A stretch of DNA of 21,679 nucleotides from a virus. Below the pieces are notes generated by a model that was not told the origin of the DNA, did no database searches, and saw only the letters and a list, made by a program, of their open reading frames with translations. Location of the stretch: the IMG/VR virus record IMGVR_UViG_3300031857_001601, positions 1 to 21,679 of that record. One strand, 5' to 3'. Positions within the stretch are counted from its first letter, which is position 1. Each line of letters starts with the position of its first letter. Below, one piece after another: positions 278-20,438 of this stretch. The position numbers and the translations under genes were made by a program.

Positions 278-610
278 TTAAAACGGTACCAAATCAGGAA
301 GATTTGTTTCGTCTTCACCATAGAACTCATTAAGAAAATTTCGGAGTTCTACTTTATCCACTCTTATTTCATTAAAATCAGGTTCATCACCCAAAACTAA
401 TTCATCTGTATCTTCTTCATATTCATAAAGAAATTCTTTTGACTCAGGATAATCTGAGTCTAAAATAAAATAACCGTAATCTTTTGTTGTTGATAAATCA
501 AACTCAGCTTCTCTCATTTGAGTCTCGGGGTCTCCCTTCATCCTAAAGCTTACTTCAATTGTCTCTGCCACGGGACAATAGTAGTAATCTATAATCTCTT
601 TCACTTTCAT
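278..610 (-). CDS. Small acidic hypothetical protein (110 aa)
   Basis: The 110-residue product is strongly acidic, with Glu/Asp runs around residues 62-80 (YEYEEDTDEL). It has no signal peptide or membrane segment and starts MKVKEIIDYYYCPVAETIEV. The start overlaps the stop of the upstream zinc-ribbon gene by four bases (ATGA), so the two are probably translationally coupled. I do not recognise the family. Its acidity and overlap suggest it is a genuine gene; the opposite-strand frame over the same DNA is a shadow. Confidence 0.7.
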   Translation of the reverse strand: MKVKEIIDYYYCPVAETIEVSFRMKGDPETQMREAEFDLSTTKDYGYFILDSDYPESKEFLYEYEEDTDELVLGDEPDFNEIRVDKVELRNFLNEFYGEDETNLPDLVPF

Positions 611-1089
611 AAGTATTTTTTGAACTTTCTAAACCAATCAAGTGATTCGTTGATTTGGTTATATACTTCGCCTTTTTTAGATTTTACTTTTATACTTTCT
701 TCTATTTCTTCCATAGAATATTTCATTCCTTCTTTCATCGAACATTGTTCACACACTTTACCCTCGGATAATACATTTCCACATTGTTCACACGTCTCAC
801 CTTCTTTCATTGAGCATTGTTCACACGTCTCACCTTCTTTCATTTCAGTTCCGCAGTTTTTACAATTTTTTTTCATTGGTTTGTTAATACCCGTATTCTT
901 GTATTCACTTACTTCATTTTTATTATTAACCGTAATTCCTTTTTCATCTAAAGCCAAATTTTCAGTATATAGAGGAGTCTCCTTACTCATTTTTGGTTCC
1001 ATCGTCTGATAACCATCATAAATGCTTCTCTGTTTTTCTCTAATTGATTTTTTTTCTTCTTCTGATATGTTTAAAAAATATGCTCTCAT
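607..1089 (-). CDS. Tandem zinc-ribbon protein with conserved N-terminal leader-like segment
   Basis: This 160-residue protein has four CxxC pairs: C76/C79, C89/C92, C100/C103 and C113/C116. They read as two tandem CxxC-x9-CxxC zinc-ribbon units. Part of the array arose by duplication, since MKEGETCEQC occurs twice and is encoded by a 30-base exact direct repeat. The N-terminus (FLNISEEEKKSIRE) resembles the leader of the gene at 13869-14378 (FKIDESEKKRILE). Both match F-x-I-[SD]-E-x-E-K-K-x-I, and here the segment ends in the I-R-E triad expected of a T4 gp21-type cleavage site. The C-terminus is Lys-rich. Zinc binding is inferred from cysteine spacing; function is unknown. A TATTTATT box lies 15 bases before the ATG. 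Confidence 0.75.
   Translation of the reverse strand: MRAYFLNISEEEKKSIREKQRSIYDGYQTMEPKMSKETPLYTENLALDEKGITVNNKNEVSEYKNTGINKPMKKNCKNCGTEMKEGETCEQCSMKEGETCEQCGNVLSEGKVCEQCSMKEGMKYSMEEIEESIKVKSKKGEVYNQINESLDWFRKFKKYL
782..844. repeat. 30-base direct repeat, period 33, inside the zinc-ribbon gene
   Basis: Two identical 30-base copies occupy 782-811 and 815-844, beginning CATTGTTCACACGTCTCACC. The 33-base period equals 11 codons, so each copy encodes one MKEGETCEQC unit on the minus strand. A diverged relative lies around 735-760. This looks like recent in-frame expansion of zinc knuckles. Confidence 0.9.
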
Positions 1090-1683: not shown

Positions 1684-2181
1684 TTAAGCCCTTGTTGGGT
1701 CGTCAACTTCACAGTAGTCCGTCATATTACCAGCGAATCCTTTTAAATGGTCCCAAACTTGATTAACAGGGAGAAGAATCTCATCACCAATCCATTCTCC
1801 CAAGTCTTGGTTGTCATAATTGTAAAAATTTGATATTTTACAAAATTCATCTTGGGTTTTAATTTTTTTAATAGTATCCATTGTACTAATTCCTAATGAA
1901 ATCCCATCCATTGCATTATGTAATTCTTTAGACATATCAATAGATTTAGAATCAGGAATGAATCTATTTTTATTACCTCTACACCATTTTACAAGTTCTT
2001 TTATATTTTTTACATAACAAGCCCAATCATCTCCCCCTGCTGGGTCATCTAAAATTCTTGGTGTTTTACCTGAAAAACCTCTTGGGGCTTTTGATAAATT
2101 TGGTATCGGACCTTGCTCACTAATAACTCTCTTAATTATTTTTACTAAATCTGATTCTGTTAATCTTACAATCTTTTTCAT
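1684..2181 (-). CDS. Virion-cargo-type protein with LTESDL leader (165 aa)
   Basis: The N-terminus contains LTESDLVKIIKRVISE followed by Q23. Two other proteins here (at 4713-5123 and 10383-10703) share nearly the same leader on unrelated bodies. I-S-E before Q fits the T4 prohead-protease rule (I/L)-x-E, so I infer a removable capsid-targeting leader of 22 residues. The mature part is Cys-containing and soluble. It includes a segment KIKTQDEFCKISNFYNY and then LGEWIGDEI, which vaguely resembles an annexin-like repeat in phage proteins; this is weak. The gene begins four bases after the stop of the DUF4314-like gene and probably shares its promoter. Function of the mature part is unknown. Confidence 0.75.
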   Translation of the reverse strand: MKKIVRLTESDLVKIIKRVISEQGPIPNLSKAPRGFSGKTPRILDDPAGGDDWACYVKNIKELVKWCRGNKNRFIPDSKSIDMSKELHNAMDGISLGISTMDTIKKIKTQDEFCKISNFYNYDNQDLGEWIGDEILLPVNQVWDHLKGFAGNMTDYCEVDDPTRA

Positions 2182-2845: not shown

Positions 2846-3493
2846 ATGGAAATTACAATTTCTGAAGATATACAGAGGAAACTTATAACTGAATCACTTA
2901 TGGGTGATTTGTCAAAAACATTGTCAAATATTTCTCAAATTGGAAAAGAAAATCTAAAGGATACCCAAAGAATGATGAAATTTGATTTAAAATTTCTTCT
3001 TACTTGGAGTGCAACAATTGGTGGTTTTATGGGACCACTGACTCAATATATTAAAGACCAAAATGTTGAATTAACTGAGGCAAATATAAATCTAATAGTT
3101 GTTGGGGTTTGTGCGACTTTATTTTATAACAATGAAAAATTGGTTGCGGAATTAGTTTCTAAAATTAAAGAAGAGGGATTACTTCCTGTTTTTGAATCAG
3201 CTCTTGAAAAAGGTGCCGAACTAAGAAGTGCTCTTATGAGATTTTTGGAGTCTATCGGATTAACTGTAGGAAATTTATTTGCAATTGCAAGTTTTACATT
3301 TTTAATTCCAATCATTGGTATTTTGAATACATATGCAACGAGTGGTGAAATTACACCTGAAAGTATTCAAGAAATATCTGAAAGAATTGCAATGGCCGGT
3401 GTTACATCTTTAAGTGCAACTACAATAAGAAATTTTTTAAAGAAGTTTTTTGCTAAATCCGAGACGGGTCAAAGTGAAGAACGGCATTCTTAA
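2846..3493 (+). CDS. Multi-pass membrane protein with capsid-targeting-like leader
   Basis: The first 16 residues, MEITISEDIQRKLITE, align with the leader of the gene at 16970-17356 (MKIVITESQYYKILSE) as M-x-I-x-I-[ST]-E-x4-K-[IL]-[IL]-[ST]-E. They end in the I-T-E triad before Ser. The body has hydrophobic segments at about 49-67, 80-95 and 138-161, perhaps a weak one at 183-197, and a basic C-terminus (FLKKFFAKS). It could be an internal virion protein that inserts in the host membrane, or simply a holin-like protein; the leader favours the first. The 3' end overlaps the convergent metallopeptidase gene by 41 bases, with both frames coding. Confidence 0.75.
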   Translation: MEITISEDIQRKLITESLMGDLSKTLSNISQIGKENLKDTQRMMKFDLKFLLTWSATIGGFMGPLTQYIKDQNVELTEANINLIVVGVCATLFYNNEKLVAELVSKIKEEGLLPVFESALEKGAELRSALMRFLESIGLTVGNLFAIASFTFLIPIIGILNTYATSGEITPESIQEISERIAMAGVTSLSATTIRNFLKKFFAKSETGQSEERHS

Positions 3494-4436
3494 TTTTTGC
3501 AACTTCATCGTCAGTAAGTTCAAACTTTTCTTGTCTAAACATAAACCAATCATCGATTACATCCTCCATTGGTAATCCCATAGATTTCGCTTTTTGTTTT
3601 AAACCAAAATACTGAGCTTCAATTTCTGCAGGTTGCATAAAATATTCAAAATTATCTCCTTGGAAATCTTCATCATCTAATCTTCCTTCTTCTGATTGTC
3701 TTGAATGTTGTAATTCGTGAGTTAAATCATCATTTAATTCACCTATAATAGAAAATAAACTTTTCTCTAATCTATCGGGGTCGACCTGTATTAAAATTTC
3801 AACATCTCCAGTGTCGGTATTATAAAATGAATTTAAATCAAAATCTCTTGCCGATTCTATTTCGTCATTAAATCTGATATCAACCATTATGTTATATTCT
3901 TCCCCACCTGACATAAAAGGAATATTAATTTCACCCTCCTCTTTCTTTTTAAGAGTATTAACAATCTTTTGAATAATACCCCTAACCATAGTTCTTGGTA
4001 CTTTTGCTTCAGAAACTTGAGCTCTACGTAGTGGGTCCTCAGTTTCAACTGATTCTGATATTTTTAAATTTTCTACTTGAGCATTTACATTAGTGTCAAG
4101 AACTTTAAAAATTTGTTCCATTTCAGACCCTATATCTCGCATCAAGTAATCAAATCCGGCGGTATTCCTATTTTCAAGCATTTCAACCCTGTTATAATTA
4201 TTCCCCTTACGGCTATCAAACATTAGGTGTGAATACATCCCCGAAACTTTAACAACCTCCACATCTAATTGTATTGTATCATATGGTTCCCCCATACTAT
4301 ACATAACTCTCTGACCTGTTACTTTTGCTGTAAAATAAAATTTTAATCCCGCAAAGTTACCATACTTTTTATCAACACTAAAAACTTTGTTTTTTAGTAT
4401 TAGATTTGCAACCTTTAATTGACCTTCACTATACAT
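3453..4436 (-). CDS. HExxH zinc metallopeptidase-like protein (327 aa)
   Basis: Residues 240-244 are HELQH in the context LNDDLTHELQHSRQ, a zincin HExxH site. Glu271 or Glu273 in QPAEIEAQYFGL is a candidate third zinc ligand, about 30 residues downstream. Residues 1-115 form a separate beta-rich region with no recognised family. A Lys/Glu-rich linker (about 118-170) contains QVSEAK, a V-S-E-Ala site that would separate the two halves if the phage prohead protease cuts there. The protein starts MYSEGQLKVANLILKNK with no signal peptide. The gene overlaps the upstream cupin-like gene by eight bases. Substrate is unknown; tagged neighbours suggest a virion or assembly role, which is inference. 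Confidence 0.8.
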   Translation of the reverse strand: MYSEGQLKVANLILKNKVFSVDKKYGNFAGLKFYFTAKVTGQRVMYSMGEPYDTIQLDVEVVKVSGMYSHLMFDSRKGNNYNRVEMLENRNTAGFDYLMRDIGSEMEQIFKVLDTNVNAQVENLKISESVETEDPLRRAQVSEAKVPRTMVRGIIQKIVNTLKKKEEGEINIPFMSGGEEYNIMVDIRFNDEIESARDFDLNSFYNTDTGDVEILIQVDPDRLEKSLFSIIGELNDDLTHELQHSRQSEEGRLDDEDFQGDNFEYFMQPAEIEAQYFGLKQKAKSMGLPMEDVIDDWFMFRQEKFELTDDEVAKIKNAVLHFDPSRI

Positions 4437-4712: not shown

Positions 4713-5123
4713 TTAACTCAAATTTTTAATCATTTCATTTTTTTCAATCACTTTTCCAATCAAAGTTCTATACTCTTCTAATTCCTTTTTAAAGTCCTCA
4801 ATTTCTTGTCCTAAACCTTGATTACTCATATTTTTTTCATTATACCTCTCAACTCTTGACATAAAATCTTCTTTAAATAGTAAATTCAAGTCGTTCTGTA
4901 TATCGTTTAAAAGAGGACTTGATTGTTCGGCGGTTGATTGGAGTCTTGTTATTGCTTTTATTAATTGTTTAGCATCTCTACCCTCACCATCCTTTCCAGC
5001 CCTTAGGGCGTTTATGAATCCCTTGAATCTTGAGACTAATCTTGTCCCAAAATCTTCATTAATTACCTTTTGAACGATTCTTTTTAAGTCGTTCTCTGTT
5101 AATTTAACAATTTTATTTTTCAT
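4713..5123 (-). CDS. Virion-cargo-type helical protein with LTENDL leader (136 aa)
   Basis: The leader LTENDLKRIVQKVINE ends at residue 23 with I-N-E before Asp. It is nearly the same as the leaders at 1684-2181 and 10383-10703. The remainder is charged and helical, with a likely coiled coil from about residue 85 to the end (EIEDFKKELEEYRTLIGKVI). A basic patch follows the leader (RLVSRFKGFINALRAGKDG). It resembles the build of T4 internal proteins: small, basic-then-charged, with a removable N-terminus. It sits in a minus-strand run with the DUF5872-like gene upstream and the cupin-like gene downstream. Function beyond probable packaging is unknown. Confidence 0.75.
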   Translation of the reverse strand: MKNKIVKLTENDLKRIVQKVINEDFGTRLVSRFKGFINALRAGKDGEGRDAKQLIKAITRLQSTAEQSSPLLNDIQNDLNLLFKEDFMSRVERYNEKNMSNQGLGQEIEDFKKELEEYRTLIGKVIEKNEMIKNLS

Positions 5124-5155: not shown

Positions 5156-5785
5156 TTACCAAAAACCTGGATAAGTTTTTCCACCCCAAAGGTGTCCGTA
5201 TCTATTAATTCTACAAGCCCAATAACCTGCGGTCATTCTATCTTTCTTTTTTTCACACTGGTGACGAGATGCAAATGCTTTTCTAGCCTTAGCATTTGAA
5301 ACTTTTGCAGTAAGTCCACCACTAACATCACCAAATGAGATTTTTTTAATTTTACCTGTGGATGGATTTTTAACGTAAACAACATATTTTTTTCCTCCAC
5401 CTGAGTTTCTCATCGGTCTCCCAACCTGAACCTTTCTACCTTGATATTCAGCTTCATTTAAACTTTCCTCTATAACTGGAATATCTAAATAAACTTCTTT
5501 TCCATTATTTAACTGAACTTTTTTACCCAAATCACTTTCAATTAATTCGAGGTCTTGTCCACCAAGTTCAATCATCTCATTTTCATAAAGATATCTAACT
5601 TCATTAATTAAGTCAAAGAAAGCTTCAGAATGACTTCTAAAAACATTATTAAATAATGGAATTTTATTATCTAAGTGGTACTGTAAATTTTCAGTTATTT
5701 CAACATTTTCAGTTAATACCATAGACTCTTTAATATTGTCGGCTTCGACCAATATTTTCTTAATAAGAGAATTAATGTTTTTCAT
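5156..5785 (-). CDS. DUF5872-like phage structural protein with N-terminal leader
   Basis: The C-terminal half (about 114-209) reads GRKVQVGRPMRNSGGGKKY, VYVKNPSTGKIKKISFGD, ARKAFASRHQCEKKKDR and TAGYWACRINRYG. This resembles the conserved C-terminal domain (DUF5872-like) of structural or core proteins of T4-like phages, with its H-x-C and Y-W-x-C cysteines (C177, C191). The first 14 residues, MKNINSLIKKILVE, form an amphipathic helix ending L-V-E before Ala. A second site, L-N-E before Ala at residue 111, lies exactly where the conserved domain begins, so proteolysis could release it. The start overlaps the upstream membrane-protein stop by four bases. Confidence 0.78.
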   Translation of the reverse strand: MKNINSLIKKILVEADNIKESMVLTENVEITENLQYHLDNKIPLFNNVFRSHSEAFFDLINEVRYLYENEMIELGGQDLELIESDLGKKVQLNNGKEVYLDIPVIEESLNEAEYQGRKVQVGRPMRNSGGGKKYVVYVKNPSTGKIKKISFGDVSGGLTAKVSNAKARKAFASRHQCEKKKDRMTAGYWACRINRYGHLWGGKTYPGFW

Positions 5786-9714: not shown

Positions 9715-10386
9715 ATGAATTTAGAACTATCGCCCGAAGAAATAAAAGCAGTTAAACAATTTTTCGCATACATCAAAAGTAACGGAGCGGATACCGCCTC
9801 AATTGACGCTAATTTTGAATGGGGAAACCAATCATATATCGGTAGAATGTATGGTGATAATGGAAGAGTAATTCCAAACTTCCCCCCCGTAGAACCAATT
9901 ATTGAAAAGATTTTTGATAAGGTAGATACGGATGAATTTGAAGATAACTTTCATGCCGGCGAAAATGATGTAGATTTTTTTAGTGTAGACCTTATTTTTG
10001 ATACGGATTCAAAAAAAATTATTGTTGAATGTAATTATTCCACTCCTGATGAAGAAGAGGCATTTGACGAAAGTGAAATTAATGATATGGATATTTTCAA
10101 AGAATATACCGATAGAGGGGTATCAGAAATAATTTGTTCTTACAATGGTGGTGGTGACAGTGGATATGTTGATGGTGATATGTCGGTTGATGGTGAAAGA
10201 GAAAGTACTCCTACCTTTCTTGAGGACATGTGTTATGATGCTTTAAGTGGCTTCGGTGGTTGGGAAATAAATGAAGGCTCCCAAGGAAATATCGTTTTTA
10301 ACTTAGTCGATAAAACAATAACCATAAACCATAGTTGGAACACGGAAGAACACCACCGTTTCAGACTTCTTGAAATGGAAGTTTAG
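9715..10386 (+). CDS. Acidic conserved hypothetical protein (223 aa)
   Basis: I use the ATG at 9715 (MNLELSPEEIKAVKQFF) rather than the 48-base upstream extension, which would run through the preceding gene's 3' end. The protein is very acidic. Its C-terminal part has a distinctive pattern: SYNGGGDSGYVDG (142-154), then EDMCYDALSGFGGWEINEGSQG (170-191), then TITINHSWN. The G-D-S-G and G-G-W-E-I-N-E-G-S motifs occur in a phage/bacterial family of unknown function (DUF6878-like, from memory). No leader. The 3' end overlaps the convergent tagged gene by four bases, without a visible terminator. Confidence 0.75.
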   Translation: MNLELSPEEIKAVKQFFAYIKSNGADTASIDANFEWGNQSYIGRMYGDNGRVIPNFPPVEPIIEKIFDKVDTDEFEDNFHAGENDVDFFSVDLIFDTDSKKIIVECNYSTPDEEEAFDESEINDMDIFKEYTDRGVSEIICSYNGGGDSGYVDGDMSVDGERESTPTFLEDMCYDALSGFGGWEINEGSQGNIVFNLVDKTITINHSWNTEEHHRFRLLEMEV

Positions 10387-10703
10387 AACACTTGAATTGT
10401 TCTTTTTGGTCTATCGTCACCAAAATCAGGACAGAAATAAACATTATTTCCATCGTGATAGATTGTTCCACCAACTCCGTTTGGAATCTTATGTTTTTCG
10501 TGGGACTTTTCACCCAAATCTATTTGGTAATTTCCATCGTGAACTAAGAAACATAAATTCTCGTATCCGCAAGTATATTGCTGGTCTTTGTTCTTGTGTC
10601 TCATAAACTCGTCAAATGACATAACATAACGAGCATTTTCATTCATAAGTCTTTTAACGACTCTATCTAATTGACTTTCTGTTAATTTAATTTCTTTTCC
10701 CAT
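10383..10703 (-). CDS. Virion-cargo-type protein with LTESQL leader (106 aa)
   Basis: The leader LTESQLDRVVKRLMNE ends at residue 22 with M-N-E before Asn, a slight departure from the I/L-x-E rule. The mature part begins with NARYVMSFDEFMRHKNKDQ. It contains YTCGYENLCFLVHDGNYQID, with two cysteines, and a beta-rich end GTIYHDGNNVYFCPDFGDD. Family unknown; it may be a small enzyme or binding domain. The ATG is abutted by TATTTATAAATT, and the gene directly follows PPK2 on the same strand. Confidence 0.72.
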   Translation of the reverse strand: MGKEIKLTESQLDRVVKRLMNENARYVMSFDEFMRHKNKDQQYTCGYENLCFLVHDGNYQIDLGEKSHEKHKIPNGVGGTIYHDGNNVYFCPDFGDDRPKRTIQVF

Positions 10704-10715: not shown

Positions 10716-11828
10716 TTAAGAATTTTCATTTGTTTCAGGTCTTAGAACAGTCATAGCTTCAGGAAATTCTTTATCTAATAATTGTTCATTTTTATTTTCA
10801 TAAGGAATATTCTGAAGCACATATCTAATCGCATTTAATCCTGAAATTTTTTTATCGTTTGCATCCAAAACAATCCAAGGGTGATTTATTGTGGATGTCT
10901 TGTCAAATAATCTTTGTTTGAACTCTGTGAACCTCTCCCACATATCTTGCATTTTGGCATCGTTAGGAGAATATTTCCAATATTTGAGAGGAGATTTTTG
11001 TCTCATTTCAAATCTTCTTGCTTGAGTTTCCTTATCAATTGAAAACCATAGTTTAAATAAGTAATCTCCTTTTTCTACAAGTTCGTTCTCAAAATTCTCT
11101 ACGTTCTCCATAAAGTCTTCATACTCCTGTTCACTACCATAACCCATAACAGGTTCAACAAGTCCTCTGTTGTACCAGCTTCTATCGAAGAAATTAATCA
11201 TACCAGGTTTAATGTGTTTTTTGTATCTACCAAACCAGTCTTGTCTTTCTTCAGGTGATGGAATACCTAAAGCAATAATATTGAAATATCTTGGATTAAG
11301 ATTTTCTGTGAATTTTTTAATCGTGGAGCCTTTTCCTGCCGAGTCTCTACCCTCAAATACAATGATAACAGTTTTTCCTGTTTCCATTAACCATTCTTGT
11401 AGTTTGAGGAGTTCTACCTGTAAGTAATAAAGTTCTTTTCTGAATACTTTTTTCTTTAGGATTGATGGTTCCTCGGGTTCAAAACTATAATCATCTTGCT
11501 CAGGCTCAATTTCATAAGTGTCAGGTTCTCTGTCTTTTAACGACCCCAAAACCTTTTCAAAATACTTAACTATCGCACTATACTTATCACCTTTTTTAAG
11601 TAATGTATTTCTAACTCCGTGTTCTAATAAATCAAAATTAATAATTTGGTCATCGGCAAGTTCAATAATACTATTAAGAAGAATTTCCACTTCTTTTTTC
11701 AATAAATTGTTTGCACTTAAAATTGTCTGAATTGACTTAATGTGTTGCTCGCTCGGTTTAGCCATTTCATTAATAGATAAACCAATCATCTTTTTTATTT
11801 TTTCAACTTCAGTTAGAAGACTCTTCAT
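10716..11828 (-). CDS. Polyphosphate kinase 2 (PPK2) family protein with N-terminal virion leader
   Basis: PPK2 enzymes transfer phosphate between polyphosphate and nucleotides, mostly making ATP or GTP from ADP or GDP. The kinase domain (about 125-345) has the Walker A GRDSAGKG (160-167), Walker B INFFDRSWYNR (211-221), MGYGSEQEYEDF, and the lid RRFEMRQKSPLKYWKYSP (271-288). It ends with HPWIVLDANDKK and IRYVLQNIPYE. All key residues appear intact, and the pattern is closest to single-domain class I enzymes. Residues 1-21 (LLTEVEKIKKMIGLSINE at 4-21) form a leader ending I-N-E before Met. It is like the leader of gene 12887-13318. Residues 22-120 are an extra helical and then acidic region not typical of PPK2. 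A box lies 15 bases upstream of the ATG. Confidence 0.92.
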   Translation of the reverse strand: MKSLLTEVEKIKKMIGLSINEMAKPSEQHIKSIQTILSANNLLKKEVEILLNSIIELADDQIINFDLLEHGVRNTLLKKGDKYSAIVKYFEKVLGSLKDREPDTYEIEPEQDDYSFEPEEPSILKKKVFRKELYYLQVELLKLQEWLMETGKTVIIVFEGRDSAGKGSTIKKFTENLNPRYFNIIALGIPSPEERQDWFGRYKKHIKPGMINFFDRSWYNRGLVEPVMGYGSEQEYEDFMENVENFENELVEKGDYLFKLWFSIDKETQARRFEMRQKSPLKYWKYSPNDAKMQDMWERFTEFKQRLFDKTSTINHPWIVLDANDKKISGLNAIRYVLQNIPYENKNEQLLDKEFPEAMTVLRPETNENS

Positions 11829-11843
11829 AAAAAAACTTTTTTA

Positions 11844-11851
11844 TATAAATA
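11844..11851 (-). promoter_or_regulatory. ATATTTATA box before the PPK2 gene
   Basis: The minus strand reads AATATTTATA, ending 15 bases before the PPK2 ATG at 11828. Long-spacing class. The same bases read TATAAATA on the plus strand, so a role in rightward transcription toward 12020 cannot be excluded. Confidence 0.5.
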
Positions 11852-12019: not shown

Positions 12020-12850
12020 ATGAAAAACACAGAAGTTTACAACGAATTAGTTCAAAAGATGAGAACATTCTTCCAATCAAAAGGATTTAAAGAAGTTCCA
12101 ACACAATCAAGACTGTCAATTTTGGCAGCATGTGAAAATCCACATTCAATTACGACATTTGAGTACAAAGGAGAGGTTTGGCCTCTACCACAAACAGGTC
12201 AAATGTGGTTAGAATATGAATTGCTTAAAAACCCTGAATGGGAGGGAGTATATTGTATTTCAACATCCTATAGACAAGAGAAAAATCCAATTCCAGGTCG
12301 TCACGAATTAATTTTCCCAATGTTTGAATTTGAATCAAAAGGAACGATGAAGGATTTATTGAAACTCGAAGAAGAATTACTTGAGTATCTTGGATTTGAT
12401 GAACCAGTTAACACAACCTATGAGGGAGTTTGCTCCGAATATGGAGGAGCGTCAATACTTGAGGACGAGCACGAACAAAGAATGTGGAAAGAAAAGGGTT
12501 CAGTAGTATCACTCCAACATTTCCCACTCAGAACCAACCCATTTTGGAATATGCAACACGGAACAAATGGAATCTTCAATAAAGTTGATGTCATTATGTA
12601 CGGTCAAGAAACAATCGGCTCGGCCGAAAGAAGTTGTGATGTGGAGAAAATGAGAGAGATGTTTTATACAATAGAAAATGGTGGTTATTCTAATAAACTT
12701 TTTGAACTTTTTGGAAAAGATAGAGTTGAGAAGGAACTTGAGGAGTTTTTATCATTTGAGTTCTTCCCTCGTTTTGGTGGCGGAATCGGAATGACTCGTC
12801 TTGCAAGAGCATACGAACTTTTAAAACAAGAACAATTACAAGAAATTTAA
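12020..12850 (+). CDS. Class II aminoacyl-tRNA-synthetase-like catalytic domain (AsnRS / asparagine-synthetase-related)
   Basis: The 276 residues contain class II motif 2 (YCISTSYRQEKNPIPGRHE, 78-96, then FPMFEFE), a VDVIMYGQETIGSAERS segment (189-205), and motif 3 GGGIGMTRL (253-261). The last segment corresponds to the G-G-x-x-R region of AspRS/AsnRS. There is no N-terminal OB-fold anticodon-binding domain, so it is unlikely to charge tRNA in the usual way. Archaeal AsnRS-like proteins of this build (AS-AR) make asparagine from aspartate using ATP; that is one candidate activity. Others are peptide or protein aminoacylation. It has no leader peptide. It stands alone between a leader region with a terminator and a bidirectional terminator. 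Confidence 0.82.
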   Translation: MKNTEVYNELVQKMRTFFQSKGFKEVPTQSRLSILAACENPHSITTFEYKGEVWPLPQTGQMWLEYELLKNPEWEGVYCISTSYRQEKNPIPGRHELIFPMFEFESKGTMKDLLKLEEELLEYLGFDEPVNTTYEGVCSEYGGASILEDEHEQRMWKEKGSVVSLQHFPLRTNPFWNMQHGTNGIFNKVDVIMYGQETIGSAERSCDVEKMREMFYTIENGGYSNKLFELFGKDRVEKELEEFLSFEFFPRFGGGIGMTRLARAYELLKQEQLQEI

Positions 12851-12886: not shown

Positions 12887-13318
12887 TTAACTTTTTGAGT
12901 AGACTGCTCCCCAATAATGTTTAATTTGTTTTGTCCCATCACCTGAGTCTTCCTCAAACTCACCTATATATGTTGGGGCAAGTTTTTCAGAGTTATATCC
13001 GTCCACTTTTGATGAGTTTATTGCTGCCGATAATTTCATTGTTTTGGCCTTTTCTTTATCTATTGATTTTCCAAGTACACACACAGAACCTTCAGTAGTC
13101 CTTTCGGTACACCATTTCTTGACATCCGAACCTACCCACTTACCTAAATTACCACTACCACTTAAAAAATCTGTATTTAATTCTTTTTGCCCATTTATAT
13201 AAGTAAACAATTGCACGGGAGCCGAACCAAGTTCACTTTGTTCTGAAACAACAATACCTCTTCTATAGCCAAAAAGGTATTGAATCTGATTAATTTCTTC
13301 TTTCAATATATTTCCCAT
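12887..13318 (-). CDS. Virion-cargo-type protein with ILKEEI...LFGY leader (143 aa)
   Basis: I start at the ATG at 13318. The frame is open 39 codons further upstream, but that extension crosses the promoter box and the opposite gene's promoter. The leader contains ILKEEINQIQYLFGY (4-18) and ends VVSE at residue 26 before Gln. It shares L-x-E-x-x-x-I-x-x-[LM]-[FI]-G with the PPK2 leader. The mature part is soluble, with GSGNLGKWVGSDVKKWC, two further cysteines-containing stretches and an end KHYWGAVYSKS. Family unknown. Box TATTTATA lies 14 bases before the ATG and a bidirectional terminator lies at the 3' end. Confidence 0.75.
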   Translation of the reverse strand: MGNILKEEINQIQYLFGYRRGIVVSEQSELGSAPVQLFTYINGQKELNTDFLSGSGNLGKWVGSDVKKWCTERTTEGSVCVLGKSIDKEKAKTMKLSAAINSSKVDGYNSEKLAPTYIGEFEEDSGDGTKQIKHYWGAVYSKS

Positions 13319-13332
13319 ATTAACATTTTTTT

Positions 13333-13340
13333 TATAAATA
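13333..13340 (-). promoter_or_regulatory. ATATTTATA box before gene 12887-13318
   Basis: The minus strand reads GATATTTATA, ending 14 bases before the ATG at 13318. Its position supports that start over the longer frame. Long-spacing class. Confidence 0.5.
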
Positions 13341-13357
13341 TCTTTTTTAAAATAAAA

Positions 13358-13390
13358 TTTGGAGTAGAGCAGTAAATTACAGTATATTTG
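13358..13390 (+). promoter_or_regulatory. Bacteroidetes-type promoter TTTG-21-TATATTTG
   Basis: TTTG (13358-13361) and TATATTTG (13383-13390) are 21 bases apart, matching the Bacteroidetes -33/-7 pattern. The -7 box ends 19 bases before the ATG at 13410. Confidence 0.6.
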
Positions 13391-13409
13391 TAGAATAAAT
13401 CCAAAACAA

Positions 13410-13826
13410 ATGAGAAATACCATCCTAACCATCACCTTTATCCTTTTGAGTTTTATCTCTAATTCTCAAGTTATTACCATTGAGTTTGATACAATTCAGT
13501 TTTTTTCTCACTCATCAAGTATTAATACCGATGAAGCTCGATTGACAAATAAAATTGTTTACGGAAATTTGGCAAAATGTGTAAAAACTGAAGTGATTAC
13601 TTTTGACTTGGATAATATGGTTGAAAAGTATAATGGTTTTGAAAATGTAATCATCAAAAATAATAATTCTAAAAATTTGGTTGATGTTGAGGTTGACGAA
13701 GCCGGCCGTATCGGACTCTGTATCTTGGGTAAAACTGAGGACAATCAAATGATTTATCTATTTGAAACAATTAAAGGTGATAAGGTTGAGGGTTACTTTG
13801 TCATTAATCCTAAAATTATTCAATAA
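13410..13826 (+). CDS. Exported hypothetical protein (138 aa)
   Basis: An N-terminal signal peptide (MRNTILTITFILLSFISNS before Gln20) is followed by a beta-rich soluble domain (VITIEFDTIQFF, KTEVITFDLDNM, DVEVDEAGRIGLCILGKT). No lipobox and no membrane anchor are seen. Such small exported proteins of Flavobacteria-type style could be host-derived. A host-type promoter and a bidirectional terminator frame the gene, so it looks like a self-contained early or accessory cassette. Function unknown. Confidence 0.7.
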   Translation: MRNTILTITFILLSFISNSQVITIEFDTIQFFSHSSSINTDEARLTNKIVYGNLAKCVKTEVITFDLDNMVEKYNGFENVIIKNNNSKNLVDVEVDEAGRIGLCILGKTEDNQMIYLFETIKGDKVEGYFVINPKIIQ

Positions 13827-13868: not shown

Positions 13869-14378
13869 TTAACTTCTACAATATTGTGATGATTTAATTT
13901 TTGAATTAACCGCATCAGCAAGTGTTTTTGTTGTTAGGTCAGAAATTTCTTGGGACAATTCTGTAACATTAGGTACTCCTGAAAATTGGTCTAATGTATA
14001 TTGCGCTCTACACAAATTTTCTTTAGACGAAACTCTTTGAGCTAAATAATTCAGTGAATCTCTAACGGCAGACAAAGCCTTTTTTCCTAAACCTGAACCC
14101 ATTCCACCAGGTGATTCCATTTGTAAATTAGTTCCTAAAATTGAATTAAGGTCACTTAACTCTTGCGGAGTAAAAGCGTTGTCACCTATAAAACTCTCCA
14201 ATGAAGTTTTGTCAACTATACCTGGTAACCTATAGGGGTTCCCTTCAATTGTAACTGTTGCCTGAGGTTGTTGCTGTTGATTTTCTTGCTCACCCAAATA
14301 ATTTCTTTTTGTTGCATTTTCGTGCATTTCAAGAATCCTTTTCTTTTCGGATTCGTCTATCTTAAATAATTGTCTCAT
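13869..14378 (-). CDS. Virion-cargo-type protein with IDESEKKRILE leader (169 aa)
   Basis: I choose the ATG at 14378 (MRQLFKIDESEKKRILEMHE) over the in-frame ATG 30 bases upstream. The leader pattern starts here and the promoter box lies between the two. The leader resembles that of the zinc-ribbon gene, and L-G-E before Gln at residue 30 is a good (I/L)-x-E site. A Gln-rich linker (QENQQQQPQ) follows. The mature region has helical stretches and a compact part with NAFTPQELSDLNSILGTNL, a Gly/Met-rich loop and two cysteines (near 136 and 167). Function unknown. Confidence 0.73.
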   Translation of the reverse strand: MRQLFKIDESEKKRILEMHENATKRNYLGEQENQQQQPQATVTIEGNPYRLPGIVDKTSLESFIGDNAFTPQELSDLNSILGTNLQMESPGGMGSGLGKKALSAVRDSLNYLAQRVSSKENLCRAQYTLDQFSGVPNVTELSQEISDLTTKTLADAVNSKIKSSQYCRS

Positions 14379-14394
14379 ACTTTTGATTTTTTTA

Positions 14395-14402
14395 TATAAA
14401 TA
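14395..14402 (-). promoter_or_regulatory. ATATTTATA box before gene 13869-14378
   Basis: The minus strand reads GTATTTATA, ending 16 bases before the ATG at 14378. Long-spacing class. Confidence 0.45.
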
Positions 14403-14415
14403 CTTCATTATTTAG

Positions 14416-16622: not shown

Positions 16623-16970
16623 TTAATTAAAATCTTGAATTACAGGTGTTACATCAATAAGAATTCTTTTAGGATTTACATTATCAAAAGATGAAATTGA
16701 GCTTACAACAGTGTTAAATAACAATTCAAACTGTTGTTGAGCCGCATCCAACATTTCTTCGTTACCCCTTAACATATCAAGATTTTTTCTATCAATAACA
16801 ATTGATACGTCGTAATTTTTTAGAGAATTGGATGACATTTTATTTTTTTGAAAACTGTTTTTGTCAATATTAACATCTTCAATCCAAGGATATTGTCTCT
16901 TCATAAATTTTTTAATAGAGTTTTCGACTCTATTAAATTCATCCTCTATTTCAGGTCTTAACCATTCCAT
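16623..16970 (-). CDS. Hypothetical protein (115 aa)
   Basis: It begins MEWLRPEIEDEFNRVENSIK, followed by KKFMKRQYPWIEDVNI, a strand YDVSIVIDRKNLDML and a helix DAAQQQFELLFNTVVSSI. No family is recognised. The ATG shares one base with the stop of the upstream tagged gene (TAATG), so translation is coupled. The helix-strand-helix layout recalls gene 8733-9122, possibly a paralogue, at low confidence. Confidence 0.65.
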   Translation of the reverse strand: MEWLRPEIEDEFNRVENSIKKFMKRQYPWIEDVNIDKNSFQKNKMSSNSLKNYDVSIVIDRKNLDMLRGNEEMLDAAQQQFELLFNTVVSSISSFDNVNPKRILIDVTPVIQDFN

Positions 16971-17356
16971 TATATCTCTTTTGGTATTTGTCTTTCTTTT
17001 CCGTCCAAAGTTATTTTCAAATTAACCATATTGAAACCTCTTTCTTTATTGAGCGGTTCCATAGAAAATCTATATGTATTTCCTTTGTAATTTCCTGTCA
17101 AAGATAATGGAAAAATGGGAAATTTATAACCCTCATTTTCGATGTGAAAAGCACTGAACTTAATAGGGGAGTTTCCCAATATTTTCATAAAATTATCTGA
17201 TGATAATTCTTTAGGTAGTTTAAACTCCCTTTGAAATTCTTCAGGAGCTAAGACCAAATTTATCATAGTCTTACCTGTAAAAACATTTTTAAGTGAGTCT
17301 AATGCACTCTCACTTAAAATTTTATAATATTGTGATTCAGTTATTACGATTTTCAT
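16970..17356 (-). CDS. Virion-cargo-type protein with MKIVITESQY leader (128 aa)
   Basis: The leader MKIVITESQYYKILSE is 16 residues long, ends L-S-E before Ser and aligns position by position with the leader of the membrane protein at 2846-3493. The remaining 112 residues are beta-rich and soluble (INLVLAPEEFQREFKLP, FPIFPLSLTGNYKGNTY, MVNLKITLDGKERQIP). No family is recognised. The start overlaps the upstream holin-like gene's stop by four bases, and its own stop overlaps the next start by one base. It is thus tightly embedded in the minus-strand run. Confidence 0.73.
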   Translation of the reverse strand: MKIVITESQYYKILSESALDSLKNVFTGKTMINLVLAPEEFQREFKLPKELSSDNFMKILGNSPIKFSAFHIENEGYKFPIFPLSLTGNYKGNTYRFSMEPLNKERGFNMVNLKITLDGKERQIPKEI

Positions 17357-17990: not shown

Positions 17991-18872
17991 TTAGAAATAA
18001 TCGTAGTCCATGTCCTCAAATGGAACTCTAAAATTTTCTTTTGAATACGTATAAATGTCATTAATCATTGACTGTAATCTCTTTTCTCCGATTTCCTTCA
18101 TCAAACTTGAATCCAGAATTATTGATTGATTAATAACAAGTTTCTTACTTGTTGGTCTTGTTTGATATCTTTCAAATATACTCTCTCCGACAATCTTAAT
18201 CTTTTCGTCCTTTGTTAAACTTCTTTTCATAAGAAGTACAAGGTCCTTATAGATAACACAATTCACATCAGGAGACTCAATTAATTTTTTATAAATTGCC
18301 TGAACTTCCTTTGTTGCATTTGGTTCTGACTGCATAAATCCTAATGTATTAAGCATTTGTTTGTAAATCTTAATACCAATATTATAACCTAATAATGTTT
18401 TGGGTAGACCTTTTGGGAAGTGAGTTCTGTTTCTTGGTCTATCAACGTAGGAGTAAATAAAATCATTCTCCAAGTAATCAAAATAGTCGTCGTAAAATTG
18501 TTCGATTTTTTCTTTTGGTGAAACTAAGTTTGTATAATCATTCTCAACAAGTTCACCATAAAAGTCTGCAAGTCTTCTCATCTTTGTTTTTATTTTAGAT
18601 GGAAGAATAATATAGAAAAACATATCTTTTGGGTGAAGATAGATATCTTCCCAATTTAAATTTTTAAGTTCATCAGAAATTTGAGAGTATAAAGTATTAA
18701 CCTTTTCAGTTATTGTTTTCAATCTCTTCTTTTCTTCTGCAGCCTTTTCTTCTTTTTTGGTTGTCTTAACAAGATATTGTTTTGGTTGCAGGGATTTTAA
18801 ACGACTAACCTTAATGCCCATTTCGGCCATCTCAGCTTCTTCCCTAAGAACTTTAAATATCAAATCCCTCAT
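17991..18872 (-). CDS. Virion-cargo-type protein with short MRDLIFKVLRE leader (293 aa)
   Basis: I start at the ATG at 18872, which places the box TATTTATA four bases upstream; the frame is open eight codons further, across the box. The first 11 residues, MRDLIFKVLRE, form a short amphipathic helix ending L-R-E before Glu. A Lys/Glu-rich coiled-coil region follows (about 38-60). The rest is a large helical soluble domain with SYVDRPRNRTHFPKGLPKTL and the acidic end FEDMDYDYF. No family is recognised. It is the first gene of the minus-strand run down to 16065 and is isolated upstream by a terminator. Confidence 0.72.
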   Translation of the reverse strand: MRDLIFKVLREEAEMAEMGIKVSRLKSLQPKQYLVKTTKKEEKAAEEKKRLKTITEKVNTLYSQISDELKNLNWEDIYLHPKDMFFYIILPSKIKTKMRRLADFYGELVENDYTNLVSPKEKIEQFYDDYFDYLENDFIYSYVDRPRNRTHFPKGLPKTLLGYNIGIKIYKQMLNTLGFMQSEPNATKEVQAIYKKLIESPDVNCVIYKDLVLLMKRSLTKDEKIKIVGESIFERYQTRPTSKKLVINQSIILDSSLMKEIGEKRLQSMINDIYTYSKENFRVPFEDMDYDYF

Positions 18873-18876
18873 ATTG

Positions 18877-18884
18877 TATAAATA
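18877..18884 (-). promoter_or_regulatory. ATATTTATA box before gene 17991-18872
   Basis: The minus strand reads ATATATTTATA, ending four bases before the ATG at 18872 and starting 10 bases downstream of the terminator hairpin. Terminator then box then gene is the expected order for an independent transcription unit. Confidence 0.55.
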
Positions 18885-18894
18885 TATCAAAAAC

Positions 18895-18921
18895 AAAAAA
18901 CCCCTCGAAATGAGGGGTTTT
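18895..18921 (-). terminator. Leftward terminator after gene 18926-19264
   Basis: Read on minus, AAAACCCCTC, loop ATTTC and GAGGGGTTTTTT form a stem of about 10 bp (CCCCTC/GAGGGG plus A-T pairs) followed by a T tract. It ends the minus-strand run coming from the right, five bases after the stop at 18926. Confidence 0.85.
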
Positions 18922-19739: not shown

Positions 19740-20438
19740 TTACAATAAACCTAATATTGGTTTTGCAAATTCCTTAACAAGTCGTTTAGAATTAATTTGC
19801 AGGTCACCAAATGATTCAAGAGTAAATGGTCTACCATCAACCTTTGTCATAAACTCAGCCTCAACACCCGGCTTAAAGTTCCCAATAGAGGATATCTCAC
19901 CATAACCAGGAAAATCGGAATTGTTGGTTCCAAACAAATAGTTATTCTCCCCACCTTTTTCCAAAATCATAACGCTATCTTGACAAAACATTTCACCGAG
20001 TTTTTTTATCTTATCAATAAAACTTGGGTCACCAGAAAGGTTAACAACAAAGAAACTATCTTCCTTAACCTCAATTTGATTGTCTGATAAATAATTTTCA
20101 ATATATGAGCCCTTAACTTTTGTAACTCCATATCCCAATGATAATAAAACGGCCTTTAAACTTTTATTCCTTCCCTTGTTATCATAGATATTTAATTTTT
20201 CAAATTCAGTATTATCAACGCAATTTACCAACTTGGACCTAAATGCGGTTATGATTGCACAATCATAGTTAATTATAAATGAGTAAACCCGGTTAAGAGA
20301 AGATTCATTTAGATTAGAAGATTTATTAGTACTATTTAATTTAATTCCCTCCATCAAACTATTTGCGCCAATTTGAGCATAACCCTCATTCAAAGAATTA
20401 AAGTTTTTAACCTTATCAATAAATTTTCTAATATCCAT
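19740..20438 (-). CDS. Virion-cargo-type protein with several L-x-E sites (232 aa)
   Basis: The first 18 residues, MDIRKFIDKVKNFNSLNE, end L-N-E before Gly. L-M-E before Gly (residue 30) and L-N-E before Ser (residue 45) follow, giving three possible prohead-protease sites in a low-complexity N-terminus. The body (about 50-232) has IINYDCAIITAFRSKLV, LLSLGYGVTKVKGSYIENYL, EDSFFVVNLSGD, FCQDSVMILEKGG and EFMTKVDGRPF. I have the impression of a conserved family with the G-Y-G-V...V-K-G-S-Y-I-E and Q-D-S-V motifs, function unknown. A box lies 13 bases before the ATG. Only a weak hairpin follows the stop. Confidence 0.72.
   Translation of the reverse strand: MDIRKFIDKVKNFNSLNEGYAQIGANSLMEGIKLNSTNKSSNLNESSLNRVYSFIINYDCAIITAFRSKLVNCVDNTEFEKLNIYDNKGRNKSLKAVLLSLGYGVTKVKGSYIENYLSDNQIEVKEDSFFVVNLSGDPSFIDKIKKLGEMFCQDSVMILEKGGENNYLFGTNNSDFPGYGEISSIGNFKPGVEAEFMTKVDGRPFTLESFGDLQINSKRLVKEFAKPILGLL

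What the first reader, a model, noticed from the sequence alone, without database searches (positions are those of the whole stretch)
10716..11828. A polyphosphate kinase 2 that appears to be carried inside the phage head
The PPK2 domain has intact Walker A (GRDSAGKG), Walker B (DRSWYNR) and lid motifs. It is preceded by a leader (LLTEVEKIKKMIGLSINE) matching the cargo class and by about 100 extra residues not typical of PPK2. A virion-delivered PPK2 could turn host polyphosphate into nucleoside triphosphates at the start of infection, or work in reverse to alter nucleotide pools. Phage-encoded PPK2 is itself uncommon, and delivery with DNA would be a new use.
Basis: partly seen in the sequence, partly recalled or inferred. 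Interest (0 to 1): 0.86.

Follow-up and report, generated by a model that had tools for sequence, protein, structure and literature searches.

The report
Phage polyphosphate kinase with capsid-targeting leader
This phage gene encodes an enzyme that makes nucleoside triphosphates from polyphosphate, and its front end looks like the cut-off 'pack me into the head' tag of phage T4 internal proteins, so the virus probably carries the enzyme into the next host cell with its DNA.

Summary
The ORF at 10716-11828(-) is an intact class I polyphosphate kinase 2 (PPK2) with a 21-residue leader and a helical N-terminal domain of about 100 residues. Both are confirmed. Its relatives are not rare: 354 IMG/VR contigs match, some in jumbo and huge phages. 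In the tree they form a phage group apart from cellular PPK2s. The N-terminal domain was found in none of the 79 nearest cellular PPK2s.

The cargo reading is well supported, but only by inference. The leader class recurs on unrelated proteins of the same phages and is under codon-level constraint. It ends in [ILV]xE, like the predicted capsid-protein cleavage site. A relative with 92% identical PPK2 encodes T4-type gp20, gp21 protease and gp23. Huge-phage PPK2s (635-735 kb genomes) carry a different leader, resembling the T4 capsid-targeting sequence and typical of their own genomes. In 12 natural fusions such motifs bracket the PPK2 module. Window-type PPK2 genes have a promoter-like element found before several structural genes.

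Caveats: the window's own leader scores weakly against non-PPK2 leader profiles, and the window itself lacks the protease. Packaging, cleavage and activity are untested. Best reading: a gp21-processed, head-packaged kinase that charges NDPs from host polyphosphate on entry.

The parts
10716..11828 (-). PPK2 precursor gene, 370 aa
11766..11828 (-). Leader, residues 1-21 (MKSLLTEVEKIKKMIGLSINE); predicted protease cut after E21
   Evidence: translated and constrained; class shared with non-PPK2 proteins in relatives; cleavage itself is inferred
11460..11765 (-). Phage-specific N-terminal region, residues 22-123: helical domain plus uncertain linker
10785..11459 (-). PPK2 kinase domain, residues 124-348
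11328..11351 (-). Walker A GRDSAGKG, residues 160-167
11166..11186 (-). Walker B DRSWYNR, residues 215-221, with class I signature N220
   Evidence: signature rule from PMC11641546
10959..11015 (-). Lid region, residues 272-290
11845..11851 (-). TATTTAT late-type promoter-like element, 16 nt before the ATG
10383..10703 (-). Next gene downstream, also leader-bearing (MGKEIKLTESQLDRVVKRLMNE|N)

Best explanation
The gene encodes a class I PPK2 that is packaged in the phage head. Step 1 (inferred from the upstream element): it is transcribed late with virion genes. Step 2 (inferred from the leader and co-occurring protease): the N-terminal leader docks the precursor in the prohead core, as the T4 capsid-targeting sequence does. 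Step 3 (inferred from [ILV]xE motifs at the MCP, leader ends and fusion junctions): the T4-type S77 protease cuts after E21 and releases the helical domain plus kinase. Step 4 (inferred from the fate of T4 internal proteins): the mature enzyme enters the next host with the DNA. Step 5 (inferred from the class I signature): it transfers phosphate from host polyphosphate to NDPs, giving the incoming phage NTPs before its own genes are expressed; this could also blunt host responses that drain nucleotides. Shown here: an intact conserved enzyme, a translated and constrained leader, leader sharing, protease and capsid genes in relatives, and motifs bracketing the module in fusions.
For: Intact class I PPK2. 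Leader under codon constraint and conserved in 52 distinct proteins. Profile of non-PPK2 leaders hits 62/80 window-type PPK2 N-termini and 0/79 cellular, 0/29 prophage-like, 0/2224 internal segments. S77 protease, gp20, gp23 in G003 and S77 in 11 of 24 further PPK2 contigs. MCP FLINE|A. Huge-phage PPK2s with T4-CTS-like leaders enriched in their genomes. Motifs at both PPK2 borders in 12/12 fusions. Late-type element before 44/52 window-type PPK2 genes. T4 precedent (PMC9026906).
Against: No virion proteome, no cleavage and no activity data. The window's own leader scores only 0.1 and 1.4 bits against non-PPK2 leader profiles. The window contig lacks the protease and capsid genes. [ILVMF]xE is common by chance (47% of 18-residue internal windows). 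A few huge-type PPK2s lack a clear leader. Most huge-type PPK2 genes lack the TATTTAT element (4/35). Whether hosts hold polyphosphate is unknown.
Confidence: 0.6

Rival explanations
1. Ordinary auxiliary metabolic gene: PPK2 is made during infection and acts in the same cell, making NTPs from polyphosphate or polyphosphate from NTPs. The leader is a targeting or regulatory extension not linked to the virion.
For: Virus-encoded ppk2 is already read this way (PMC13188868, PMC9636769). Enzyme under very strong constraint.
Against: Leader class shared with unrelated proteins, second T4-CTS-like leader type in huge phages, cleavage-like motifs at fusion borders including fusion to lysozyme-like domains, late-type element rather than the TAnnTTTG element.
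Confidence: 0.15
2. Head-packaged, but its main job is to remove polyphosphate as a host stress signal, or to refill nucleotide pools drained by host defences, rather than to feed normal early transcription and replication.
For: Other leader-bearing proteins include counter-defence types: SAM lyase, RNA ligase and an Acb1-like hit.
Against: No direct link to a particular defence. PPK2 gene products would do both jobs at once, so sequence cannot separate them.
Confidence: 0.15
3. Head-packaged structural or core protein in which the enzyme activity is a leftover.
For: The phage-specific helical domain could serve assembly; no known fold match.
Against: All catalytic motifs invariant and dN/dS 0.017 in the kinase domain.
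Confidence: 0.05
4. The true start is Met22 and the 'leader' is untranslated or chance sequence.
For: Residue 22 is Met in the closest orthologues.
Against: Codons 2-21 have dN/dS 0.165; the leader is conserved in homologues without Met there, such as L110 SLNE|SPKS and L113 TINE|ETKS.
Confidence: 0.03

Closest known systems
Phage T4 internal proteins IPI-IPIII and Alt (capsid-targeting sequence cut by gp21; PMC9026906)
   Same: Short N-terminal leader ending in a hydrophobic-x-Glu motif, shared by otherwise unrelated proteins; S77 protease, gp20 and gp23 in relatives; huge-phage PPK2 leaders look like the T4 type
   Different: Cargo is a metabolic enzyme; the window-type leader is longer (21 aa) and of another sequence class; PPK2 also occurs inside fusions with motifs on both sides; packaging not shown
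Class I PPK2 of Francisella tularensis (4YEG, 5LL0) and Sinorhizobium meliloti (3CZQ, 6DZG)
   Same: Kinase domain, Walker A, Walker B with class I Asn, lid, fold
   Different: Phage-specific helical N-terminal domain and leader; below the TIGR03707 equivalog cut-off; separate phage group in the tree
phiKZ and SPN3US inner-body and ejection proteins
   Same: Head proteins with propeptides cut by a prohead protease after Glu and sent into the host (PMC5694885, PMC13282480)
   Different: Much longer propeptides, AxE or SxE sites, RNA polymerase subunits and unknown proteins as cargo, no PPK2
Virus-encoded ppk2 reported as auxiliary metabolic gene (PMC13188868, PMC9636769)
   Same: PPK2 on viral contigs
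   Different: The passages read there do not mention a leader, packaging or delivery

Membership tests
PPK2, class I | PPK2 domain over the Pfam cut-off | tested here: met
   PF03976, 247 bits against 22.3
PPK2, class I | Walker A DxxGK, Walker B RSxY, lid | tested here: met
   D162-K166, R216-Y219, lid aligned with F. tularensis PPK2
PPK2, class I | Asn after Walker B | tested here: met
   N220, invariant in 59 phage PPK2s; rule from PMC11641546
PPK2, class I | Class I fold as best structural match | tested here: met
   5llb/5ll0 TM-score 0.95 by target length
PPK2, class I | polyP-dependent NDP kinase activity | not testable with these tools
   needs an enzyme assay
TIGR03707 PPK2 equivalog (P. 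aeruginosa type) | Score over the curated cut-off | tested here: not met
   272.2 against 301.8 bits
T4-type capsid-targeted internal proteins | Short N-terminal propeptide ending in [LI]xE | tested here: met
   MKSLLTEVEKIKKMIGLSINE|M; conserved in orthologues
T4-type capsid-targeted internal proteins | Leader shared with unrelated proteins of the same phages | tested here: inconclusive
   Met for the PPK2 family (62/80); the window's own leader scores only 0.1 bits
T4-type capsid-targeted internal proteins | gp21-type S77 protease in the genome | tested here: met
   In G003 with 92% identical PPK2 and 11 of 24 further contigs; not within the 21.7-kb window
T4-type capsid-targeted internal proteins | Cut form present in mature virions and sent into the host | not testable with these tools
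   needs virion proteomics

The most novel reading that the evidence does not exclude
T4-like jumbo and huge phages carry a modular protein payload. Enzyme cassettes (PPK2, lysozyme-like domains, SAM lyase, RNA ligase and others) are joined to a leader or lined up in polyproteins between prohead-protease sites, freed during head maturation and injected with the genome. PPK2 is the part that recharges nucleotides from host polyphosphate before any phage gene is expressed.
Probability: 0.35. Interest if true: 0.87.

Novelty: new variant of a known kind. Interest (0 to 1): 0.74.

Why it matters
If true, viruses deliver a ready-made energy enzyme with their DNA. Viral ppk2 genes, now read as auxiliary genes acting in the producing cell, would instead act in the next cell. 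It would also give a sequence rule for reading the injected protein payload of uncultured T4-like jumbo phages, most of which has no known domain. The claim can be tested directly by virion proteomics and an enzyme assay.

Tried and rejected
Met22 start: rejected on codon constraint and homologues lacking that Met. Recent capture from a host: not supported, because phage PPK2s form their own group; two long-branch cellular rows fall inside it, and the tree is a quick one. Extension shared with cellular PPK2: not found in the 79 nearest. Intein in the 649-660 aa PPK2s: rejected, they are fusions to lysozyme-like domains. Known fold for the N-terminal domain: none at E<=0.001. DNA-level match to annotated phages: none. 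Literature on packaging of phage PPK2: none found in the held library. Cultured relative for proteomics: Flavobacterium phage immuto has a related MCP (40.5%), but no PPK2 match or annotation was seen, and I found no proteome for it. A first narrow leader regex found few non-PPK2 leaders and was replaced by profiles.

Full report
What is there. The ORF at 10716-11828 on the minus strand codes for 370 residues. Residues 124-348 are a PPK2 domain (PF03976, E 2e-73). The score for the NCBI equivalog TIGR03707 is below its cut-off (272 against 301.8), so it is a divergent PPK2. Asn220, directly after the RSWY of Walker B, is the class I signature (PMC11641546), which points to phosphorylation of nucleoside diphosphates. 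It is invariant in 59 phage PPK2s. The closest solved structures by fold are class I PPK2s of Francisella and Sinorhizobium; by sequence they are near the top, with the two-domain PA3455 protein first. The AlphaFold2 model (mean pLDDT 85.7) shows a low-confidence leader (1-23), a confident helical domain, an uncertain linker and the kinase core.

Source. The window is a 21.7-kb IMG/VR virus record. Seven contigs hold a PPK2 91-94% identical. One of them, G003 (80 kb), has T4-type terminase, portal (with an intein), S77 protease and gp23 capsid genes. Its capsid protein matches Flavobacterium phage immuto and other T4-like phages. Its N-terminus contains ASFLINE|AAST at residue 60, which I read as the counterpart of the T4 gp23 cleavage site; the T4 sequence is from my own knowledge.

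The leader is real. In six orthologues codons 2-21 show dN/dS 0.165, the helical region 0.069 and the kinase 0.017. A wider scan found 354 viral contigs with a PPK2 relative; the best 80 include contigs up to 321 kb. Nearly all of their 52 distinct proteins begin with M..LL.E[IV].RIK..MG...[ILV].E or a close variant. Some apparent exceptions are explained by upstream GTG or TTG starts.

The leader is shared. In the 321-kb contig G013 five non-PPK2 proteins begin with the same class, for example MNLNENISRVKELMGLVSE|E, against PPK2 MKLLSEIDRFKSLMGVVNE|E. A profile built from 10 non-PPK2 leaders scores 62 of 80 window-type PPK2 N-termini at 8 bits or more, and none of 79 cellular PPK2s, 29 prophage-like PPK2s or 2224 internal segments. 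The 80 include duplicates. The window's own leader scores only 0.1 bits there and 1.4 in an earlier profile, so its assignment rests on close orthologues (L109, 92% identical, scores 13.8).

A second leader type. Huge phages LR756502, LR756501 and LR745206 (635-735 kb) carry PPK2s 40-56% identical. These begin MINNFIKFINE|E, MISNYDNFMNE|S and MPVYNFHKFINE|E, which resemble the T4 internal-protein targeting sequence (its letters are from my own knowledge). The pattern [YFWH]..[FYM][ILMVF].E occurs in the first 22 residues of 30 of 831 (LR756502) and 57 of 834 (LR756501) proteins, against 0.57% and 0.73% of internal windows. PPK2 thus carries, in each phage group, a leader typical of that group. 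T4 targeting sequences are 10-19 residues long, are cut by gp21 and can carry foreign proteins into the head and the host (PMC9026906).

Fusions. In L117, L120 and L126 PPK2 is fused to a protein with a lysozyme-like domain whose homologue is a separate, leader-bearing gene in G004. Homology between the two begins at the motif [LI]NE|TEG or LKE|QEG. In L292, L293, L295, L314, L318, L319, L320, L329 and L337 PPK2 sits inside or beside other proteins. A [ILVMF]xE motif lies at the N border and the C border in all 12; in L337 a stricter motif occurs only twice, at the two borders. Several of these are near-copies, the C-side search window can also contain motifs belonging to the kinase end, and the Fisher value (9e-7) treats residues as independent, so it is only a guide.

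Timing. TATTTAT peaks 4-6 and 13-17 nt before start codons in these contigs. Within 30 nt it precedes protease and portal genes, the G003 terminase, a baseplate gene, a head-completion gene and endolysin, and it lies a little further from the tail tube and sheath genes. It does not precede the DnaB, exonuclease, RecA, SSB or ThyA genes; MCP and hub also lack it. It is before 48 of 71 leader-bearing genes and 136 of 671 others, and before 44 of 52 window-type PPK2 genes against 26.7% of all genes. I take it as a late-type promoter element; this is not proven. Huge-type PPK2 genes mostly lack it (4 of 35).

Extension and origin. The helical domain was detected in 79 of 79 window-type PPK2s, weakly in LR756501 (E 0.0018), and in none of 79 cellular PPK2s; the cellular set is only the nearest loci found. 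In a quick tree 62 phage PPK2s group apart from cellular and prophage-like ones (SH-aLRT 100) except for two long-branch cellular rows.

Mechanism. I infer late synthesis, docking in the prohead core, a cut after E21 by the S77 protease, ejection with the DNA and polyP-driven NDP phosphorylation at the start of infection. I hold packaging at about 0.8; the exact role is less certain. Other leader-bearing proteins include types linked to counter-defence (S-adenosylmethionine lyase in the window; RNA ligase and an Acb1-like hit in the huge-phage and G013 set), which suits an early-acting payload.

Known or new. Virus-encoded ppk2 has been reported and read as an auxiliary metabolic gene (PMC13188868, PMC9636769). 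I found no paper in the held library on packaging of PPK2 in virions. I call it a new variant of a known kind: T4-style head cargo, with a polyphosphate-dependent kinase as the cargo.

Noticed in passing
window 19740-20438 (-): S-adenosylmethionine lyase family protein (PF23780, E 7e-9) whose N-terminus MDIRKFIDKVKNFNSLNE|G also looks like a leader: a possible head-packaged anti-restriction protein.
   Followed up: partly
window 1684-2181, 4713-5123, 5156-5785, 10383-10703, 12887-13435, 13869-14408, 16970-17356, 17991-18896 (all -): Further ORFs with leader-like N-termini of several classes (LTESDLxxIVKRVIxE|Q, IDESEKKRILEMHENATKRNYLxE|Q, LxEEINQIxYLFGY...SE|Q and others); the mature parts tested had no Pfam match.
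   Followed up: partly
L117, L120, L126, L292, L293, L295, L314, L318-L320, L329, L337: PPK2 occurs in fusions with lysozyme-like domains, with homologues of window proteins 2186-2830 and 3453-4436, and with unknown proteins, with [ILVMF]xE motifs at both module borders, as in a polyprotein.
   Followed up: partly
L022:1821-4718: The T4-type portal gene of contig G003 holds an intein with a LAGLIDADG-like endonuclease domain.
   Followed up: no
window upstream regions; L019-L032, L421-L437: TATTTAT at two sharp distances (4-6 and 13-17 nt) before start codons, probably a late promoter element; a TAnnTTTG element typical of Bacteroidota is seen before other genes.
   Followed up: partly
LR756501 and LR756502 (L033-L102): Dozens of huge-phage proteins share T4-CTS-like N-termini (for example MIKKYxxFINE|S). 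Domains found in the scanned leader set (huge phages plus G013) include RNA ligase, 2'-5' RNA ligase/Acb1-like, methyltransferases, DeoC-type aldolase, radical SAM and DHH.
   Followed up: partly
window 12020-12850 (+): Protein resembling a class II (Asp/Asn-type) tRNA synthetase core without the usual N-terminal part; belongs to phrog_29758 (unknown function).
   Followed up: no
window 607-1089 (-): Small protein with repeated Cys pairs (CKNCGTEMKEGETCEQCSMKEGETCEQCG...), possibly zinc-ribbon repeats of variable number.
   Followed up: no
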